Source: a virus. From it: a DNA stretch of 21,672 bases. The translations under genes and the position numbers were made by a program. The notes beneath the pieces are model-generated. The model searched no databases, was not told the DNA's origin, and was given only the letters and a program-made list of their open reading frames with translations. Within the stretch, counting starts at the first letter, position 1, and every line of letters starts with the position of its first letter. Below are positions 1,159 to 19,294 of this stretch, piece by piece. The stretch is taken from the IMG/VR virus record IMGVR_UViG_3300031772_000331, positions 1 through 21,672 of that record; one strand, written 5' to 3'.

Positions 1159-3039
1159 ATGAGTACAACATTGTATTTAAATACAGCCAGTATAAAAATA
1201 TTAGAAATTGTTTCTAATTGCACGTCATCTGTTGGATCTACTATAGATTTTAAAGATTCTACTTTTGTCTCAGGAAGTTTTTATGGAGATGGAACAAATT
1301 TAAGAATAGATTCCGCGTCGTATTCAACTACAGCATCTATCGCTCTTACTACTATACCAAATGAATCAGCATCGTATGCTACAACCGCATCTATCGCTCT
1401 TACTACTATACCAAATGAATCAGCATCGTATGCTACAACCGCATCTTTTTCTCTTAACACCAAAGATTTATTGACTGACGATATTAAATTATTTTTGGGT
1501 AATTCCATAGATTCTAACATTTCCTTGTTATCAGGTTCAACTATTGTAGGTTATTCTGCTGGAGCAATAACTTCATCAAACGCAGTGATGGTGGGGTATC
1601 GGGCAGGACAAAATATAAATATAGCTCCAAATTCAACAATAATTGGTTATTATTCCGGATTAAATGTCAATACCGCATCAGATGCAACATTAATCGGATA
1701 TCTTTCTGCAGCGTCCTCTTCAAATACATCCGACGCAGTAATAATTGGATATCTTGCCGGCCGTTCAGCAATAACGGCATCAAATGCAGTAATAATTGGT
1801 GCAAATGCTGGTTTATTAGCAGATAATTCGTCAAATACAACATTGATTGGCACTAGTGCTGGCCAAAGTACAAAACTTTCATCCACTGCAGTAATAATTG
1901 GTTACTGGGCCAATTTAAATGGAGCAACTTCGTCGTTTGCAACAATAATAGGTGCCCAAGCTGGTCAGAATATAAAAAACGCAACAAATGCTGTAATAAT
2001 AGGATACACTGCTGCTTCGTCCGCAATAACCGGATCTAATGCAATATTAATTGGGTACAGGGCTGGACAAAATATACAAAATGCAGATGATGCAATAATA
2101 ATTGGTGATACTGCTGGAACGTCTGTAAAAACAGGGTCAAATACAATAATAATTGGTAATACTGCCGGCGCAAATGCAACAAGCGCATCGTATGCTATAA
2201 TAATAGGATATCAGACTGCTGCTAATACTTCTAAAAACACAGAAAATTCAATATTGATGGGTAACAAAGCTGCATATAATGCAAAAACAGCATCAAATTC
2301 AATAATAATTGGTCCTTATGCTGGATACGCCGCATCACAATCAGATAGTGCAATAATGATTGGTCCTTATGCTGGATATGTTGCAACCCAATCGAATAAA
2401 AGTATATTAATTGGATATGAAGCAGGGTATTCAATGAACAGACCGAATACTTTAGTTATTGATAGTCAGGACACTTCCAGATCTTCTTCTGCTTTTATTT
2501 ATGGAGAAATGGATAATAAGAAATTATTTATTAATTCAGATATATATGTTAGCGAATCAAAACAAATCTATGGAACATGTTCAATTGCTCTCAATGCTGG
2601 CGGAGGGCTAAATACTGGATCAAGTTATCCTATTACATCAAGTTGGGCAGAAACAGCAAGTTATGCTCTTCGTTCTCCTACTACAACCATTTTTTCAAGA
2701 GGAGGTACATTTTATGATGCTGGTGGAATATGTGGGAATGCAGCAGTAAGTAATAGTATTATTGTTTGGAAAGCACCATTTAATTGTGTAGCCACCGCAG
2801 TACATGGATGTATGGTTGCCACATCAACAACAGCTACATCTTCAATTAACGCAAGAAGAAATGGTATAGGATCGTTATTATCTACAAATTTATTGGTTAC
2901 TGCATCCAACTTGTGGTTTTCATTTACAACATTACAGACTTCATCTTTTTCAACTGGAGACAGACTAGAGATTATGTTAATGTCTTGTTCACTATGTCCA
3001 ACCCATTCATCTATACAAGTTGATTTTACAAAATCTTAA
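1159..3039 (+). CDS. Long repeat-rich fiber protein
   Basis: This 626-residue protein starts at ATG 1159, four bases after the previous stop and without a strong ribosome-binding site. Residues ~1-115 hold a fiber-type lead-in (SGSFYGDGTNL) and SASYATTAS repeats, including an exact 18-residue tandem duplication. Residues ~126-430 consist of about 18 copies of a ~17-residue unit, roughly N-A-[VI]-I-I-G-Y-x-A-G-x-x-x-x-T-A-S. This regular hydrophobic-Gly spacing suggests a beta-helix or trimeric beta-roll shaft. After it comes a transition segment (NTLVIDSQDTSRSSSAFIYG, then KKLFINSDIYV), a pattern seen before C-terminal domains of phage fibers. The final ~115 residues (from IFSRGGTFYDAGGICG) form a separate Cys- and Ser-containing domain, probably the tip. 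The protein is most likely a trimeric receptor-binding or decoration fiber. No S74 chaperone protease motif was seen. Stop codon and next gene lie close together. Confidence 0.7.
   Translation: MSTTLYLNTASIKILEIVSNCTSSVGSTIDFKDSTFVSGSFYGDGTNLRIDSASYSTTASIALTTIPNESASYATTASIALTTIPNESASYATTASFSLNTKDLLTDDIKLFLGNSIDSNISLLSGSTIVGYSAGAITSSNAVMVGYRAGQNINIAPNSTIIGYYSGLNVNTASDATLIGYLSAASSSNTSDAVIIGYLAGRSAITASNAVIIGANAGLLADNSSNTTLIGTSAGQSTKLSSTAVIIGYWANLNGATSSFATIIGAQAGQNIKNATNAVIIGYTAASSAITGSNAILIGYRAGQNIQNADDAIIIGDTAGTSVKTGSNTIIIGNTAGANATSASYAIIIGYQTAANTSKNTENSILMGNKAAYNAKTASNSIIIGPYAGYAASQSDSAIMIGPYAGYVATQSNKSILIGYEAGYSMNRPNTLVIDSQDTSRSSSAFIYGEMDNKKLFINSDIYVSESKQIYGTCSIALNAGGGLNTGSSYPITSSWAETASYALRSPTTTIFSRGGTFYDAGGICGNAAVSNSIIVWKAPFNCVATAVHGCMVATSTTATSSINARRNGIGSLLSTNLLVTASNLWFSFTTLQTSSFSTGDRLEIMLMSCSLCPTHSSIQVDFTKS
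1333..1440 (+). repeat. Exact 54-bp tandem duplication in fiber gene
   Basis: Two identical 54-bp copies (1333-1386 and 1387-1440) stand head to tail, and the first 6 bases of the unit follow again at 1441. Each encodes an 18-residue unit of the SASYATTAS / IALTTIPNE type. The copies are identical at nucleotide level and in frame, so the duplication is recent and lengthens the shaft by 18 residues. Confidence 0.95.
1536..2445 (+). repeat. Array of ~18 degenerate 51-bp repeats (17-residue units)
   Basis: The coding sequence repeats about every 51 bp. Each unit encodes an IIG or LIG core followed by an AG pair and a Thr/Ala/Ser turn. At DNA level the copies have diverged (recurrent 'ataataattgg' cores), so this is an old protein-level array, unlike the exact 54-bp duplication just upstream. 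Boundaries are approximate, set where the GxxAG spacing begins and ends. Confidence 0.85.
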
Positions 3040-4241: not shown

Positions 4242-4550
4242 TTATTGCATTTCATTTGGAGCTTTCCAGTGATGAAACGGATGTTTGTCTTCACCTTTTT
4301 CAAATCCTAACCCCTGTAAAATCGTTTCGGTTGTTTCTTTAATATCATCATCCCACGTTATGATCGCTGGAGGATCATACATTATCTGAAAATCTTTTTT
4401 ACCTTTAACCGTTATATTTTTAAAAATTGAAGGTAATACTACCTTAGCGAAGTTTTCTTTAGATAAGTTATCCATATAGATTTTATGGACTTCAGAATTT
4501 ACTTCTTTTACTATTTCTTTGATTAGTTTGCGTAGTTGAGAAAATTTCAT
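4242..4550 (-). CDS. Hypothetical small protein with MKxSQLxxLIxEI leader
   Basis: The protein has 102 residues. Residues 1-17 (MKFSQLRKLIKEIVKEV) match the opening of two other small proteins in this window (19306-19530 and 19527-19787), a basic amphipathic helix found at the N terminus of many unrelated small phage proteins. The rest (IMYDPPAIITWDDDIKETTE, LGFEKGEDKHPFHHWKAP) belongs to no family I recognise. It contains Asp- and His-rich patches but no clear active site. The shared leader on different C-terminal bodies suggests a sorting or packaging tag; see findings. It lies 15 bases downstream of the GNAT gene and 3 bases before the next gene, so it is probably co-transcribed with both. 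Confidence 0.6.
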   Translation of the reverse strand: MKFSQLRKLIKEIVKEVNSEVHKIYMDNLSKENFAKVVLPSIFKNITVKGKKDFQIMYDPPAIITWDDDIKETTETILQGLGFEKGEDKHPFHHWKAPNEMQ

Positions 4551-4997: not shown

Positions 4998-6647
4998 TTA
5001 AAAATCATCTCTCCACTCATATTTTAAATGTCCACAATCCCATATTCGGTCGTAACCCAATTCTTGCATTATTTGCCATTCTGTTTTGTTTCTGTCATGA
5101 CCTAACCTAACAAGTTTTTGTTTTGTAAAGTTAAATCGGTGTTCCCTCTTATATTTTTTAATATACCAATAATTTGGTTTTGTTTCGTCAACAAATTTAA
5201 AACCTATTTTTTCATATACATTATTTCTGTTTGTCCACCTTCTATCAGCATAAGATATGATTTTAACTGGTTTAATTTCATTTACAAAACAAGATAATAA
5301 TTTACCGGCAATACCAACAATTCTATATTTTTCTGTAGTAGAAAATCTAAGCATTTCGTATTCATTTTCTTTCTTATTTTTATTCCCCAACGCTATTCTA
5401 AGTAAAGAAAAAGTCATAACCGCTACCAATTCGTCATCATAATAGGCACCATAACAATATAAGGCATTGGCTTTTCCTTGACTATGTGTTTTCTCAAGAA
5501 AGAGATTAGCAGTCGGATTATCTATTTTTTTGACTATACACTTGCGAGCATAGATTTTTTGAAGGTTATTATTTTCTCCTAATTTATGTAAAATTTTATT
5601 TTTGACTATATCTGTTTTAAAAAGCCATTCATCCTCAAATATTTGAATAACATTGTATCCAATAGATTCAAAACATTTTAATTTTTCAATGTGATATTTC
5701 TTATCCTTTAGTCCTCCCATTTCACTATGCCAAAACAACCCATTCAATTCTATAATGATTTTCTTATCTTCAAAACAAATATCGCCTTCGTATATCTTTC
5801 CATTTATATTAAATCTTTTATTTGGAGTGAAATTTAATTTTGTAGTTTCTTTTAACCACTTCATTAATGACGATTCTTCTTTGGATCGAGCGTTTTTATA
5901 AGTTTCTTCACACTTTTTACAAAAAGGTATTAATAAAGTATCATTCCATTTATTATTACATAAAATACATTTAAATTTTAACAAATTTAAATTTATAATA
6001 TCATTTTCATTTCCAAGACATATCATTCTCAAAGATTTTAATTTATTAATATAATCACTCCAATTTTTATAATGTAAATTATAATTATATTTTCTAATTT
6101 TTAATTTACATTCGTTGGTTATTGTATATCTAGATTCTCCATATTTTTTTATATTTGTTTGTTTAGTTTTTTCTATACATTCAGAAGATTTAACAAATGT
6201 AGAAAACAATTCTCTTGTAGAATTTGTTTTCATTATATTTTCTACACCATATTTTTCCAGTAATGTTTTTCTAGATTTTTCTTTACACCAATCCGTAGAA
6301 AACACGTTTTTAACACCAAATTTTTCCATTGATGTTTTTTCACATCCTTCTTTAATTTTTTGTTTGGTTTCCTCTGTGTGTGGTTTTCTTGGAAAACAAT
6401 TTTTTGTAAAATTATGAAAAAAGGGCCCCAATTTGGATGCCTTAAATGAGAGTGGTTTACCTGTCTTTAAACAAACGGGTCTGATGTTATTATAATATGC
6501 CTTTAAAATATATTGCTCAAAATTCAATCCGTATATTTTTCTAACATACCAAATCATTTTTTTACTAGAATCAAATTTTTTACCATCTAGTAAACACGTT
6601 TTAGCCTCTTCATCAGTTATTGTTATTTCATTTTCATTTCTAATCAT
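4998..6647 (-). CDS. Homing endonuclease-like protein A (Vsr-like nuclease)
   Basis: This is a 549-residue, very AT-rich gene. Residues ~85-185 contain degenerate repeats (MEKFGVKNVF, LEKYGVENIM, IKKYGESRYT), a pattern of DNA-binding regions in phage homing endonucleases (DUF7487-like). C227/C230 and C243/C246 form a likely zinc knuckle. Residues ~255-345 are the nuclease core: KEESS near 256, D289, E300 and H307 in IELNGLFWHSE, then FEDEW, resembling the Vsr/EDxHD endonuclease fold. A second domain (~365-500) with VGIAGKLL, ISYADRRW and YEKIGFKFV looks GNAT-like. The tail ends DRIWDCGHLKYEW. The C-terminal 270 residues closely match protein B at 10073. It is free-standing behind the capsid terminator with its own sigma70-like promoter. 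Probably a selfish element that cuts alleles lacking it; the target is unknown. Confidence 0.8.
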   Translation of the reverse strand: MIRNENEITITDEEAKTCLLDGKKFDSSKKMIWYVRKIYGLNFEQYILKAYYNNIRPVCLKTGKPLSFKASKLGPFFHNFTKNCFPRKPHTEETKQKIKEGCEKTSMEKFGVKNVFSTDWCKEKSRKTLLEKYGVENIMKTNSTRELFSTFVKSSECIEKTKQTNIKKYGESRYTITNECKLKIRKYNYNLHYKNWSDYINKLKSLRMICLGNENDIINLNLLKFKCILCNNKWNDTLLIPFCKKCEETYKNARSKEESSLMKWLKETTKLNFTPNKRFNINGKIYEGDICFEDKKIIIELNGLFWHSEMGGLKDKKYHIEKLKCFESIGYNVIQIFEDEWLFKTDIVKNKILHKLGENNNLQKIYARKCIVKKIDNPTANLFLEKTHSQGKANALYCYGAYYDDELVAVMTFSLLRIALGNKNKKENEYEMLRFSTTEKYRIVGIAGKLLSCFVNEIKPVKIISYADRRWTNRNNVYEKIGFKFVDETKPNYWYIKKYKREHRFNFTKQKLVRLGHDRNKTEWQIMQELGYDRIWDCGHLKYEWRDDF

Positions 6648-10072: not shown

Positions 10073-10083
10073 ATGAAAAAACT
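10062..10083 (+). repeat. 11-bp tandem duplication at a start codon, with 4-codon upstream ORF
   Basis: The 11-base unit atgaaaaaact occurs twice in a row (10062-10072 and 10073-10083), and a third ATG follows at once. The first ATG is six bases after GGAAG (10051-10055), an ideal distance, but it reads Met-Lys-Lys-Leu-stop. The stop (10074-10076) overlaps the ATG at 10073, which opens endonuclease B. The good ribosome-binding site therefore serves the tiny frame, and the real gene would need re-initiation. Confidence 0.85.
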
Positions 10084-11824
10084 ATGTAAAAATTGCAATA
10101 AAGAATTTGACACTCATAGAAATTCAAAACAACATTGTTCAGCAGAATGTTTTAAACAATATAGATTAAAACCAGAAGTAATTGAAGAGTCTAAAAGAAA
10201 AAGAAAAGAATATAATCTAAAAAAATACGGAGTAGATAATCCTGCTAAATTAAAAGAAATTAAAGAGAAATCAAAACAAACCTGCTTAGAAAAATATGGT
10301 GTCGCTTCACCCACTCTTGTAAAAGAAATTCATGATAAACAAATAAAAACGTGTCTGAAAAAATATGGCGTAAAAAATCCACAACAAAATAGAAAAATAC
10401 AACAAAAACAACAAAAAACCTTGTTCAAAAATTATGGAGTTATCATTCCATTACAAAATAAACAGATAAAAGAAAAAGCAACACAAACCTGTTTAGAAAG
10501 ATATGGTGTTGATAATGTTGCAAAATTTAATGAAACCAAAGAAAAAGCAAAACAAACTTGTTTAAAAAAATATGGAACGGAAAGCCCATCTCAAAATGAA
10601 GAAATAAGAAATAAGCAAATAAAAACATGTCTAATAAATCATAATACAAAAACTCCACAAGAAAATTTTCTTATAAAAGAAAAATCTAGAATACAAAGAA
10701 AAAAATTATATTATTTTAAATTATTTAATACCGATAGGTTAAAAAGACTGGTAAAACCGTTGATGACCGAATTAGACTATATAAATACAAAACACGGAAA
10801 TAATTTAAAATTTCAATGTAATCGGTGTGATAATGTTTTTGAAGATAATTTAAAAAGCGGAAACATACCCAGATGCCAAATTTGTTATCCAATACACCAA
10901 TCTAAATTACAAACTGAAATTATAGAATATATTAAATTTTTAGATTCATCTATAATAATATATGAAAACGATAGAAAAACGTTAACTCCATTAGAATTAG
11001 ATATTTATATTCCATCTAAAAAATTGGCCATAGAATTTAACGGATTGTATTGGCACAGCGAAATTGGAGGGAAAAAATATAAGAACTATCATTTAAACAA
11101 AACAAATAAATGTATAGAAAAAGAAATTAAATTAATTCATATCTTTGAAGACGAATGGATAGAAAAACCAGAAATAGTAAAAAATCGGTTAAAATATATA
11201 TTAGGTAAAAATAAAGAAAAATCAATATATGCTAGAAATTGTGAAATTAAAGAAATATTTTCAAGCGAAGCAAATAATTTTCTTGAAAAATATCATCTTC
11301 AAGGTGAAGATAGATCGTCTATTCAATTAGGTGCATTTTACAACAATGTATTGGTGTCTGTAATGACTTTTGGAAAATTGAGATTGGCTCTTGGTTTTAA
11401 AAAATTAAAAGAAAATGAATACGAAATATATCGTTTTTGTGTAAACGATAAAAATATAATCGGTGTAGGTGGAAAACTATTTAATTATTTCATTAAAAAA
11501 TATAATCCGTCTAAAATTATCTCGTATGCTGACAAACGATGGAGCAATAACAATGCCTTTTATACTAAAATTGGAATGAAACTTGTATCCGAAACAATGC
11601 CAAACTATTGGTATGTTGGTAATAATTATATGCATAGATATTATCGATTTAATTTCAGAAAATCGGAATTACATAAAAAATTAGAAAATTTTGATCCAAA
11701 TTTAACTGAATGGGAAAATATGCAGTTGAATGGTTATGATCGAATTTGGGATTGTGGAAATTTAAAATATGAATGGGTAAAACTAACTTTAGTGAATAAA
11801 CCTAAAATTCAAATATATTTATAA
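10073..11824 (+). CDS. Homing endonuclease-like protein B (Vsr-like nuclease)
   Basis: This 583-residue protein is a paralogue of protein A (4998-6647). It opens with a zinc finger (C5, C8, H21/C22, C26). Residues ~50-195 carry about six repeats of ~25 residues around [KR]YGVxNP and a Lys/Glu-rich helix (DUF7487-like DNA-binding repeats). A second zinc knuckle uses C249/C252 and C268/C271. The nuclease core has D310, E321 and H328 (IEFNGLYWHSE) and ends in FEDEW, like Vsr/EDxHD endonucleases. A second domain (IIGVGGKLFNYF, ISYADKRWSNNN, YTKIGMKLV) looks GNAT-like, and the end is DRIWDCGNLKYEW. It is A-rich and low in GC. It is transcribed divergently from the scaffold gene, so proteins A and B bracket the scaffold-capsid pair. 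Its start is affected by the 11-bp duplication at 10062. Function as a homing endonuclease is inferred; the target is unknown. Confidence 0.8.
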   Translation: MKKLCKNCNKEFDTHRNSKQHCSAECFKQYRLKPEVIEESKRKRKEYNLKKYGVDNPAKLKEIKEKSKQTCLEKYGVASPTLVKEIHDKQIKTCLKKYGVKNPQQNRKIQQKQQKTLFKNYGVIIPLQNKQIKEKATQTCLERYGVDNVAKFNETKEKAKQTCLKKYGTESPSQNEEIRNKQIKTCLINHNTKTPQENFLIKEKSRIQRKKLYYFKLFNTDRLKRLVKPLMTELDYINTKHGNNLKFQCNRCDNVFEDNLKSGNIPRCQICYPIHQSKLQTEIIEYIKFLDSSIIIYENDRKTLTPLELDIYIPSKKLAIEFNGLYWHSEIGGKKYKNYHLNKTNKCIEKEIKLIHIFEDEWIEKPEIVKNRLKYILGKNKEKSIYARNCEIKEIFSSEANNFLEKYHLQGEDRSSIQLGAFYNNVLVSVMTFGKLRLALGFKKLKENEYEIYRFCVNDKNIIGVGGKLFNYFIKKYNPSKIISYADKRWSNNNAFYTKIGMKLVSETMPNYWYVGNNYMHRYYRFNFRKSELHKKLENFDPNLTEWENMQLNGYDRIWDCGNLKYEWVKLTLVNKPKIQIYL

Positions 11825-16919: not shown

Positions 16920-17456
16920 TCAATCAGGATAAACTAAACCCCAATCTACAAAGTTGAAAGCTTCCAGATTTGTGCCCCCTGCGTAGGAGATTGCGCTCGA
17001 AAGCGATTGTTTAATTTCTTCCATTCTCTCAGCATAAGTCAATCCTTCTTCCAATTCAATCTGACGACCTTCGATGTGTTTTCTTTGTCCTTTGGATTCA
17101 TATGAAGTTGATCCACGGTAAAGTTTTTTGCCACCAACAATTTTGGCTGGAGAATCAATACAAGAAGCGAACCATCCACCTGACATAACCATAGTAGCGC
17201 CAAACGTTAACGCCTTGGCAATATCTCCATAATATTTCGCTCCTCCATCTGCTATAATTGGAACGTTTGATTCTTGTGATTCATAAACAGATTGAAGTGT
17301 TGGAAGATGGAATCCTGTCATGTATCGAGTAGTACAAATACTGTTGTGAACGATTATATTGAACACATTATATGACTTAGTAGATTTTACCTCTAAATCA
17401 TATACCTTTCCAATATAAGGAACGAATTCTATTTTTTTTATTTTTATAAGTTTCAT
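16920..17456 (-). CDS. guaC: C-intein + C-terminal half of GMP reductase (fractured gene, part 3)
   Basis: The protein has 178 residues. Residues 1-38 are the C-terminal part of a split intein: block F as GKVYDLEVKSTKSYNV and block G as IIVHN, ending in the His-Asn pair needed for Asn cyclisation. The next residue is Ser39, the +1 nucleophile. Residues 39-178 are the C-extein, starting SICTTRYMTG with the catalytic Cys of IMPDH/GMP reductase (C41). It continues IIADGGAKYYGDIAKAL (phosphate-binding Gly), ATMVMSGGWFASC and QSLSSAISYAGGTNLEAF, closely like Bacillus-type GuaC. The start overlaps the stop of the endonuclease gene in ATGA (17453-17456). After splicing to the product of 18411-19256 it gives a 321-residue enzyme that would reduce GMP to IMP with NADPH. 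The IMPDH reaction cannot be excluded. It is not a degenerate fragment: all key residues are present. Confidence 0.9.
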   Translation of the reverse strand: MKLIKIKKIEFVPYIGKVYDLEVKSTKSYNVFNIIVHNSICTTRYMTGFHLPTLQSVYESQESNVPIIADGGAKYYGDIAKALTFGATMVMSGGWFASCIDSPAKIVGGKKLYRGSTSYESKGQRKHIEGRQIELEEGLTYAERMEEIKQSLSSAISYAGGTNLEAFNFVDWGLVYPD

Positions 17457-18379
17457 AACTGATTTATCATTTCACCTATTGCTGATATATCTTTTTCTAA
17501 GTTTATGATACGATTTTCGGCTTCTTCTACACGATAAAGAACATATCCATTTTCTGCTGCTATTCTATTTTTTATTTCGTCATTTTTATTTTTTATAACT
17601 TTATGCCAATAATATCCATCATACTCTATTAGTATTTTACCAAAAAGACATATATCATAATAATATCCAAAAAGAGGATAATTAGATTTTACATTTTCAT
17701 TTCCATATTTTTCTGCTAACAGATTGTATAATCTTAGTTCGGGAGCAGATGGATTAGAGTATAGTTTTTTATAAGCACAAATAACATCTAAATCTTCTTT
17801 AGATACTAAACCAAGTTTTACCCACCAATATTTTAGTGTTCTATAATCTATTTTATATTTATCCATCAACAAATCACGATTTATTCCGCCCACCAAATAT
17901 TCTTGTAATACATTTTCTAATTCTTCTTTAGTTTTATTTATTCTATTTAGTCCATTTTGTATTACTTTATCTTGATTTTTGATTCGAAAATCTTTATTAG
18001 CCTTTTTTATTTTTTCTATGGTTTCTTTACTGTGATGTTTCCCATAAAAGGGGTTTTTGTTTCCTATATGTTTACATCTTTCGTTATTTTTGAGATTTTG
18101 TATAACCTTTTCAGTATGAGATTTCCCAAAAAATGGATTGTTGATTCCTTTGTAATCGTGAACATTTGCGCCCATTTTCTTTTTGGATTTTTCTGTGTGA
18201 TGTTTCCCATAAAAGGGGTTTTTGTTTCCTTTAATGCAACACGATTGACATAGATATTTTTTATAAAGAAAAATTTTTCTAAAATATTTCAGTGTCACTT
18301 CCTTTTTACAAAAAGAACACAATATTCTAACTTCTTTTGTATGTTCGTCGATAGTATAAGTATTTATAGTCATATACAT
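17453..18379 (-). CDS. Homing endonuclease C between split-intein halves (NUMOD3 + Vsr-like)
   Basis: The protein has 308 residues. C21/C24 and C44/C47 form a zinc finger. Three NUMOD3 motifs follow (NPFYGKHHTEKSKKKM at ~54, NPFFGKSHTEK at ~81, NPFYGKHHSKETIEKIKK at ~109), helices that contact DNA in modular homing endonucleases. Residues ~155-192 look like a helix-turn-helix (YLVGGINRDLLMDKYKIDYR). The nuclease core is residues ~210-290: E214, D242, E252 and H259 in IEYDGYYWH, a Vsr-like EDxHD arrangement. It is a separate gene with its own start (AGGAG four bases before ATG 18379, ten before ATG 18373), 31 bases after the N-intein gene and overlapping the C-intein start by four. This is the layout of fractured-gene split inteins. 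It presumably cuts the intein-free enzyme gene to spread the whole unit. Confidence 0.88.
   Translation of the reverse strand: MYMTINTYTIDEHTKEVRILCSFCKKEVTLKYFRKIFLYKKYLCQSCCIKGNKNPFYGKHHTEKSKKKMGANVHDYKGINNPFFGKSHTEKVIQNLKNNERCKHIGNKNPFYGKHHSKETIEKIKKANKDFRIKNQDKVIQNGLNRINKTKEELENVLQEYLVGGINRDLLMDKYKIDYRTLKYWWVKLGLVSKEDLDVICAYKKLYSNPSAPELRLYNLLAEKYGNENVKSNYPLFGYYYDICLFGKILIEYDGYYWHKVIKNKNDEIKNRIAAENGYVLYRVEEAENRIINLEKDISAIGEMINQL
18031..18065 (-). repeat. 35-bp exact direct repeat, copy 1, in endonuclease C
   Basis: This copy is identical base for base to 18196-18230, 165 bases away (55 codons, so in frame). Each copy encodes the GNKNPFYGKHH core of a NUMOD3 motif (third and first motif respectively). 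The second motif in between has diverged, so the outer two were probably duplicated or converted recently. Confidence 0.95.
18196..18230 (-). repeat. 35-bp exact direct repeat, copy 2, in endonuclease C
   Basis: Second copy of the repeat at 18031-18065, encoding the first NUMOD3 motif. Recombination between the copies would delete 165 bp in frame and leave one NUMOD3 motif fused to the rest of the protein. Confidence 0.95.
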
Positions 18380-18410
18380 TCTACTCCTATACCATAAATA
18401 TAACCCACGG

Positions 18411-19256
18411 TCACATTTTAATCAAAAAATATTCGTGAGAAAGTTTTTCTGCTGAAATCCATTCTGCATATTGATGAATATTTTTATCATTGACTATAGA
18501 TTCATGTTTTTTATGAACAACATAAAACTCGTGGTTTTTAGTACACGTAATGTTATTATTTATTCTTATAACTTCCTCATCTCTATCTTCAGAAAAAGTA
18601 TGTGTCACTTCTTCAAATGTATCAAGATGTGTCAATACTTTTTCTCCCACAACAATATCTTGAATATTTTTATATCCATTTTCAGTCAAAACTTTTGTAT
18701 TCGGAATAAAGCAGCCGCCGCCGATGCCCACTTTAATGGCATCCACTCTCAATAATTCTAAATAATGAATTCCCGCTCCTGTAGCTACATTACCGACTAT
18801 GAGTTTGGTTTTTGGAAACCATTTACGAATAAATTCTATTGCCGGTCGAACATTGATGTGGTGTCCGTGAGCTACGTCAATAGTAATAAAATCTATCCTC
18901 CACGATTCTCCGATAGGTATTGCCAATTCTGGTTCATATTCGTTGGTGCCAATACTTACACTAATACATTTCCAGTTTTCTTGATTTGCCTTTTTAATCA
19001 ACGTAGAAGTTTTTAAATGTGGGTGGTCAGAATTTTCTTTGCCAAAACGATGATAGATGTAAAAATAATCGTTTTCTGATAAAAATTTAGCATTGTCTGG
19101 AGATATAACATCCTCCATATTAGCGGGAATAACAGGCAGTTTAAATCTCCGCCCCAAAAAATCTACGGAAGTATCGGCATCACTTCTAGATGGTAATGTA
19201 GAAAACTTCGGACGCAGACAAACGGTGTCATAAGATAATAATAAAAAATCTTTCAT
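18411..19256 (-). CDS. guaC: N-terminal half of GMP reductase + N-intein (fractured gene, part 1)
   Basis: The protein has 281 residues. Residues 1-181 are the N-extein, a TIM-barrel half of the GMP reductase/IMPDH family: PKFSTLPSRSD, FKLPVIPANMEDVI, NDYFYIYHRF, FITIDVAHGHH, LIVGNVATG and AIKVGIGGG. These resemble Bacillus-type GuaC more than IMPDH, and no CBS domains are present. Residues 182-281 are the N-intein: Cys182 opens block A (CFIPNTKVLTENGYKNIQD), and block B is ITCTKNHEFYVV with the T-x-x-H motif. The break falls between GIGGG and SICTTR, just before the catalytic Cys loop, the commonest kind of intein site. It matches the IMPDH-1 split intein in length and motifs. The protein ends LIKM with no endonuclease domain. 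Cys1 and Ser+1 suit fast trans-splicing. The gene has its own sigma70-like promoter. Confidence 0.93.
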   Translation of the reverse strand: MKDFLLLSYDTVCLRPKFSTLPSRSDADTSVDFLGRRFKLPVIPANMEDVISPDNAKFLSENDYFYIYHRFGKENSDHPHLKTSTLIKKANQENWKCISVSIGTNEYEPELAIPIGESWRIDFITIDVAHGHHINVRPAIEFIRKWFPKTKLIVGNVATGAGIHYLELLRVDAIKVGIGGGCFIPNTKVLTENGYKNIQDIVVGEKVLTHLDTFEEVTHTFSEDRDEEVIRINNNITCTKNHEFYVVHKKHESIVNDKNIHQYAEWISAEKLSHEYFLIKM

Positions 19257-19266
19257 ACAGCATTAC

Positions 19267-19294
19267 ACTATACGAAAGATTTGAGAATTGTAAA
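19267..19294 (-). promoter_or_regulatory. Sigma70-like promoter of the fractured gene
   Basis: TTTACA (19289-19294), a 16-base spacer and TATAGT (19267-19272), each one mismatch from consensus, lie on the minus strand. The start codon at 19256 is ten bases past the -10 box, so the leader would be only a few bases long. It would drive all three parts: N-half, endonuclease C and C-half. Confidence 0.55.

What the first reader, a model, noticed from the sequence alone, without database searches (positions are those of the whole stretch)
16920..19256. Fractured GMP reductase: split intein with a free endonuclease gene in between
The sequence shows an enzyme N-half ending GIGGG joined to a Cys-led N-intein (blocks A and B), then a separate NUMOD3/Vsr-like endonuclease gene, then a C-intein (block F, VHN) joined to SICTTR and the rest of the enzyme. 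Neither half carries the endonuclease in its own frame. The joined exteins restore the catalytic loop and a full 321-residue barrel. From knowledge of the field, this is the fractured-gene arrangement described from ocean metagenomes (IMPDH-1 class). All splicing residues (C1, TxxH, penultimate H, terminal N, Ser+1) are present, so trans-splicing should be active. This copy is linked to gp21/22/23-like genes, which gives the element a phage context.
Basis: partly seen in the sequence, partly recalled or inferred. Interest (0 to 1): 0.93.

Follow-up and report, generated by a model that had tools for sequence, protein, structure and literature searches.

The report
Phage GMP reductase split by intein
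A phage gene for a nucleotide-metabolism enzyme has been broken in two by a selfish element that should stitch the protein back together after translation; the element's DNA-cutting gene also turns up, on its own, beside unbroken copies of the same enzyme gene in related phages.

Summary
On the minus strand lie three genes: GMP reductase 1-181 fused to a 100-aa N-intein; a free-standing homing endonuclease (three NUMOD3 motifs plus an EDxHD/Vsr-fold nuclease, best structural match I-Bth0305I); and a 38-aa C-intein fused to the other 140 residues. The break is at GIGGG|SICTTR in the catalytic loop. This is a new member of the known fractured-gene (IMPDH-1-like) kind. Three points go beyond it. 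(1) The split enzyme belongs among about 20 intein-free GMP reductases of the same T4-like phage group, whereas other carriers of this endonuclease in inteins are IMPDH-like, so the element arrived horizontally. (2) The endonuclease clade (14 contigs found) occurs only in or beside GMPR/IMPDH; its two closest relatives are free-standing next to INTACT GMP reductase genes, one inserted after codon 7 of the gene, one just downstream. (3) The site also carries continuous mini-inteins, endonuclease remnants and a LAGLIDADG intein, a natural series of homing-cycle states. Splicing, cleavage and homing are inferred, not shown. A co-varying hairpin over the GMP reductase start codon was found in passing.

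The parts
18714..19256 (-). N-extein: GMP reductase residues 1-181, ending GIGGG just before the catalytic-loop SIC
   Evidence: aligned to intein-free alleles up to the junction
18411..18713 (-). N-intein (100 aa, Cys1, block B TKNH) and stop codon
   Evidence: TIGR01445 above cut-off; profile hits gp41-1 6qaz; 49-53% identical to N-inteins at the same site in L026-L028
18380..18410 (-). Spacer between N-half and endonuclease; holds a leader (TATTTATGGTATAGGAGTAGAATGTAT) partly shared with the free-standing relative in L004, with an SD-like GGAG
   Evidence: local alignment over 27 bases, score 29, best of 500 shuffles 27
17453..18379 (-). Free-standing homing endonuclease gene: 3 NUMOD3 motifs, C-terminal EDxHD/Vsr-fold nuclease (candidate E214, D242, H259, D267); start may be the second ATG at 18373
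   Evidence: PF07460 E 7e-19, 3 stretches; profile to 3r3p E 6.9e-5; model residues 211-308 to 3r3p Z 11.3, rmsd 2.7, 92 aligned; conserved residues
17343..17456 (-). C-intein (38 aa, ends VHN); its ATG overlaps the endonuclease stop (GTTATGAAA), so translation is probably coupled
   Evidence: PF14890; HMM 70 bits; sequence
16920..17342 (-). C-extein: GMP reductase residues 182-321 from Ser+1 (SICTTR...), with stop
   Evidence: 65-76% identical to intein-free alleles of the phage group
19246..19282 (-). Hairpin that pairs the 5' leader with the start codon region of the N-half; native control element of this phage group's GMP reductase genes
   Evidence: -17.4 kcal/mol, z -5.5; arms co-vary across 20 genes, 0 of 20,000 permutations reach the observed pairing

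Best explanation
This is a fractured gene: a GMP reductase interrupted two residues before its catalytic Cys by a class 1 split intein, with a separate EDxHD homing endonuclease gene between the intein halves. SHOWN: the anatomy, the conserved splicing residues, the HINT fold (modelled on a natural continuous homologue), the nuclease fold, the empty alleles, and foreign ancestry relative to the host gene. INFERRED: the three genes are translated from one mRNA with coupling at the endonuclease/C-half overlap; the two intein parts associate and splice in trans to give a 321-residue GMP reductase with a GGG-SIC junction; the endonuclease cuts intein-free GMPR/IMPDH genes near this codon pair, and repair from the carrier copies both intein halves and the endonuclease. 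Insertion in the catalytic loop makes imprecise loss destroy the enzyme, and the intein protects the carrier from self-cleavage. The endonuclease lineage is dedicated to this target gene and can also persist outside the intein, beside an unbroken copy.
For: Both extein halves match one enzyme family and abut exactly. Intein profile and fold: gp41-1 by sequence; a model of the continuous homologue L024 (pLDDT 93.5) matches gp41-1, NrdJ-1 and many other inteins (54 hits E<=0.001). Endonuclease: I-Bth0305I is the top hit by sequence profile, Foldseek and VIA-align. Empty alleles in conserved synteny S77 protease - GMPR - 140aa - 177aa - nucleotidyltransferase. Horizontal arrival: extein groups with intein-free GMPRs (70% to L132) while other hosts of this endonuclease in inteins are IMPDH-like; G+C 0.37-0.40 in exteins against 0.24-0.27 in intein and endonuclease. 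Target dedication: the 14 contigs with close endonuclease relatives (337-407 bits; next hit 83) all carry it in or next to GMPR/IMPDH.
Against: No splicing, cleavage or homing was measured. The window's N- and C-intein were not modelled together because they are separate chains; the fold rests on a 43-47% identical continuous homologue. GMPR as the cleavage target is inferred from linkage. Free-standing carriers (L004, L031) do not show unusual divergence at the site compared with endonuclease-free alleles, so how they avoid self-cleavage is unexplained.
Confidence: 0.9

Rival explanations
1. Decayed intein or assembly artefact: a once continuous intein-endonuclease broken by frameshifts or misassembly.
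For: Remnants do exist at this site elsewhere: endonuclease remnants in L020 and L025.
Against: Each ORF is intact with its own start; the same three-gene order with this endonuclease recurs in 11 other contigs; the endonuclease/C-half overlap is clean; all splicing residues are kept.
Confidence: 0.04
2. Genes in pieces without splicing: the two halves assemble non-covalently into an active enzyme, as in Aeh1 NrdA split by mobE.
For: Precedent in T4-like phages (PMC2988022).
Against: Conserved intein halves with class 1 residues flank the break and would obstruct a barrel enzyme if not removed; the break lies in the catalytic loop.
Confidence: 0.04
3. The free-standing endonucleases in L004 and L031 came first, and the window's composite was put together by joining such an endonuclease to a split intein of another lineage (collaborative-homing route), rather than the free genes being escapees from an intein.
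For: Holding all intein-embedded endonucleases of the clade together without the free ones is rejected at p-AU 0.029; the window intein groups weakly (89/84) with inteins that carry a different endonuclease subtype.
Against: Outgroup endonucleases are also in inteins at this site; intein/endonuclease discordance is not significant (p-AU 0.06); groups were named after seeing the tree; L004 and L031 differ in position.
Confidence: 0.3
4. The endonuclease is linked to GMPR only by hitch-hiking and its cleavage site is elsewhere.
For: Other endonuclease families also settle near this locus, e.g. L006 and L003 between S77 protease and GMPR.
Against: Close relatives are linked to GMPR/IMPDH in different gene neighbourhoods in all 14 contigs found.
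Confidence: 0.1

Closest known systems
Fractured genes with split inteins (Dassa et al. 2009, doi 10.1093/nar/gkp095; cited via PMC7090010, PMC11766414, PMC7891396; the paper itself was not held)
   Same: Host gene broken into N-half+IntN, free-standing endonuclease gene, IntC+C-half; phage-like metagenomic origin; class 1 residues Cys1 and Ser+1
   Different: Host here is GMP reductase; the extein is not of the clade that carries the other close relatives; relatives of the endonuclease were found free-standing at the intact gene
IMPDH-1 split intein (fast, orthogonal tool intein; PMC11766414, PMC7090010)
   Same: As I recall its published sequence, the same insertion site GGG|SIC; L026/L027/L029 appear to be of that kind by recall; IntN 49-53% identical to L026/L027
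   Different: Paralogous host enzyme; about half of intein residues differ; identity of L026-type loci with published IMPDH-1 could not be checked (string search found no paper)
I-Bth0305I, EDxHD homing endonuclease (PDB 3r3p; PMC3943268)
   Same: Catalytic fold (Z 11.3) and conserved E..D..x..H..D order
   Different: I-Bth0305I is a group I intron endonuclease; here NUMOD3-type DNA-binding repeats and a split-intein setting
Intronless and collaborative homing in T4-like phages (mobE, SegF/G, F-CphI; PMC2988022, PMC6083498, PMC10448857)
   Same: Free-standing endonuclease next to its presumed target gene, hundreds of bases from the presumed cut site (L004, L031)
   Different: The same lineage also lives inside a split intein at that target; the target genes in L004 and L031 carry no intervening sequence

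Membership tests
Fractured-gene split intein | Two ORFs, N-extein+IntN and IntC+C-extein, that together make one full enzyme | tested here: met
Fractured-gene split intein | Free-standing endonuclease ORF between the halves, in neither frame | tested here: met
Fractured-gene split intein | HINT-fold splicing domain with class 1 residues | tested here: met
   residues; profile hit to gp41-1; fold of continuous homologue (homologue, not the window's own two chains)
Fractured-gene split intein | Trans-splicing activity | not testable with these tools
   needs co-expression and mass spectrometry
IMPDH-1 intein allele | Same insertion point between GGG and SIC | tested here: met
   pattern scan and extraction; site of published IMPDH-1 itself from recall
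IMPDH-1 intein allele | Host gene IMPDH | tested here: not met
   host is GMP reductase-2 kind and groups with intein-free GMPRs
EDxHD homing endonuclease | Vsr/EDxHD nuclease fold with conserved E, D, H, D | tested here: met
   assignment of the letters to catalytic residues is inference
EDxHD homing endonuclease | Site-specific cleavage of the intein-free allele | not testable with these tools
   no assay
Collaborative homing | Free-standing endonuclease adjacent to an intervening sequence that lacks its own endonuclease | tested here: not met
   in the window the endonuclease lies between the intein halves; in L004 and L031 the adjacent gene has no intein

The most novel reading that the evidence does not exclude
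One endonuclease lineage dedicated to GMPR/IMPDH alternates between two life styles: enclosed by a split intein, and free-standing next to an unbroken copy of the same target gene (inserted after codon 7 in L004, just downstream in L031). The window's element would then be a composite of an endonuclease from the free-standing pool and a split intein of another lineage, that is, the collaborative-homing route to a mobile splicing element, seen for inteins.
Probability: 0.3. Interest if true: 0.75.

Novelty: new member of a known kind. Interest (0 to 1): 0.52.

Why it matters
It extends the fractured-gene class to GMP reductase and, more usefully, gives in one phage group and at one codon pair the empty, intein-split and endonuclease-only alleles needed to test how endonucleases and splicing elements come together or part. 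A published study (PMC10448857) says it is not clear how collaborative-homing arrangements arise; here the alternatives can be tested with real alleles. The split intein is also a new candidate ligation tool, related to the fast IMPDH-1 intein.

Tried and rejected
Single-sequence scan for the endonuclease found nothing; profile scans were needed. Resistance by site divergence in L004/L031: not supported, since endonuclease-free L142 and L137 are as diverged at the site. Intein/endonuclease discordance: suggestive but not significant (p-AU 0.06). A clade of the two free endonucleases alone: not supported and not rejected (p-AU 0.07). Bacterial genomes gave only distant zinc-ribbon Vsr-type proteins (L206, L207), not this clade. 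No Rfam match or tRNA in the window. No relevant paper held on a GMP reductase intein. Dassa 2009 itself is not in the library. Weak NUMOD3-only neighbours of intact GMPR in L006, L009, L008 and L141 belong to other endonuclease types and were not counted. Scans use short conserved patterns, so relatives may have been missed.

Full report
What is there. The window is a whole 21,672-base virus record. On the minus strand between 19256 and 16920 lie three ORFs in the order N-half, endonuclease, C-half. The N-half is GMP reductase residues 1-181 followed by a 100-residue N-intein starting at Cys; the C-half is a 38-residue C-intein ending VHN followed by GMP reductase residues 182-321 starting at Ser. 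Both extein parts match the same family (NF003966 GMP reductase, E 6.7e-41 and 9.4e-30) and the same solved enzyme, 1ypf. The middle ORF overlaps the C-half start codon (GTTATGAAA), and a 31-base spacer separates it from the N-half.

It is an insertion. At least ten contigs of the same phage group hold an uninterrupted gene that reads GIGGGSIC[TS]T through the junction, at 50-62% (N part) and 62-76% (C part) identity, within the same order of genes: S77 prohead protease, GMP reductase, a 140-aa protein, a 177-aa protein, a nucleotidyltransferase. The neighbourhood is a T4-like head cluster (gp23 PF07068, gp21 PF03420); nearest named phages by major capsid protein are Microcystis phage Mel-JY01 and Flavobacterium phages 'immuto' at 51-52%.

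The intein. Cys1, T58xxH61, penultimate His, terminal Asn and Ser+1 are present; Cys1, T58 and H61 are invariant in 18 N-inteins from this site. A profile of these hits the solved gp41-1 intein (E 1.6e-5). The window's two chains could not be modelled as one, so I modelled the natural continuous homologue in L024, aligned with the split ones: mean pLDDT 93.5, with matches to gp41-1, Prp8, NrdJ-1 and many other HINT structures.

The endonuclease. Three NUMOD3 motifs precede a C-terminal domain whose best match is the catalytic domain of I-Bth0305I by sequence profile (E 6.9e-5), by Foldseek (E 0.011, probability 1.00, but only TM 0.24 of the query because one domain aligns) and by VIA-align (Z 11.3, rmsd 2.7, 92 residues, range 211-308; Vsr follows at Z 9.4). 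E214, D242, H259 and D267 are conserved and give the E-D-x-H-D order; that these are the catalytic residues is inference.

Where the element came from. In a tree of exteins the window's GMP reductase lies among about 20 intein-free GMP reductases (70% to L132), in a branch separate from all other hosts of this endonuclease in inteins, which are IMPDH-like (family scores). Exteins have G+C 0.37-0.40, intein halves and endonuclease 0.24-0.27. So the element is foreign to this gene lineage and has crossed between two paralogous enzyme families that share the catalytic-loop sequence.

Many states of one site. A pattern scan for HN|S-x-C at this site and the endonuclease scan gave, at the same codon pair: split inteins with an endonuclease of this clade (L026, L027, L029, L030, L032, L033, L034, L038, L039, L040, L041); split inteins with other NUMOD3/Vsr-type endonucleases (L022, L028, L042, L044); split inteins with endonuclease remnants only (L020, L025); continuous mini-inteins (L021, L024); and a continuous intein with LAGLIDADG-like motifs (L023).

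The endonuclease outside the intein. The close clade (14 contigs, 337-407 bits, next hit 83) has two members that are not in an intein. In L004 (50% identical, the window's nearest relative) the gene stands directly upstream of an unbroken GMP reductase. The DNA in front of it is the native 5' region of GMP reductase: aligned to L006 it scores 70 against at most 32 in 1000 shuffles, and it contains the old start and first codons (MTKDFLL, then a stop at the endonuclease's leader). The endonuclease therefore sits after codon 7 of the gene, and the enzyme body restarts behind it with a second N-terminus. In L031 (353-kb contig) the gene stands directly downstream of an unbroken, divergent GMP reductase, the only copy in that record; no GMPR intein was found in the L004 or L031 records. 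In the tree the window, L004 and L031 endonucleases group together (88/90; window+L004 93/88); holding all intein-embedded ones of the clade together is rejected at p-AU 0.029, although the group was named after the tree was seen. The window intein groups weakly with inteins that carry another endonuclease subtype (89/84), but the test of this discordance is not significant (0.06). Direction, escape from the intein or assembly from free parts, is thus open.

How it most likely works. Shown: anatomy, folds, empty alleles, foreign ancestry, linkage of the endonuclease to one target gene. Inferred: coupled translation, trans-splicing to a 321-residue enzyme, cutting of intein-free GMPR/IMPDH and repair that copies the whole unit. 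The free-standing genes would home by the intronless route, with the presumed cut site about 440-540 bases away, as reported for T4 free-standing endonucleases (PMC2988022). How L004 and L031 avoid cutting themselves is unexplained; their sites are not more diverged than those of some endonuclease-free alleles.

Known or new. The arrangement is the fractured-gene organisation of Dassa et al. 2009; that paper was not held, so I rely on papers that cite it and on recall. The window is a new member. Not found in the held literature, which is incomplete: a GMP reductase host and the same endonuclease lineage free-standing beside the intact target.

In passing. GMP reductase genes of this phage group carry a hairpin that pairs the leader with the start codon region. 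Arms change together between phages (e.g. ATCTTTCATTT/AAATGAAAGAT, AAAATCGTTCATA/TATGAACGATTTT, AAATCTCTCATG/CATGAGAGATTT, TTATCCATGC/GCATGGATAA). True pairings exceed all of 20,000 reshuffled ones, and the window's hairpin folds at -17.4 kcal/mol, z -5.5. It survives in front of the endonuclease in L004, while the restarted enzyme gene there has none (z -0.7). A likely role is to block translation from read-through RNA, as known for some T4 genes (recall).

Noticed in passing
window 19246-19282 (-), and the 5' ends of GMP reductase genes in L002, L006, L009, L011, L013, L014, L144, L004 (about 4410-4455): Inverted repeat that covers the start codon, with arms of 8-15 bp that co-vary between phages; a likely translation-control hairpin, retained upstream of the endonuclease in L004.
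   Followed up: yes
window 4998-6647 (-) and 10073-11824 (+): Two further free-standing homing endonucleases (phrog_3339, DUF7487 repeats) flank the gp23 and presumed gp22 genes; relatives sit between the S77 protease and GMP reductase in L006 and L003.
   Followed up: partly
L030 4773-6431 (+): The C-half of this IMPDH appears to hold a second, larger intein-like insert after YRGMA, so one enzyme may carry both a split and a continuous intein.
   Followed up: no
L006 1195-2889 (+); same record G005:C1 14224-14463 (-): Intein-like N-terminal region inside the S77 prohead protease ORF (25.7 bits; E 3e-8) and another inside a 2306-residue ORF (E 1.7e-8).
   Followed up: no
L021, L024, L025, L023: Continuous mini-inteins, an endonuclease remnant and a LAGLIDADG-type intein at the same GMPR/IMPDH codon pair.
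   Followed up: partly
window 18361-18368 (-) and seven other places: TATAAATA, the T4 late promoter consensus from recall, occurs 8 times against 3.3 expected; one copy lies in the first codons of the endonuclease gene.
   Followed up: no
window 1159-3039 (+): Tail or fibre-like protein with many repeats of the kind IIGYxAGxxxxxASNAVIIG.
   Followed up: no
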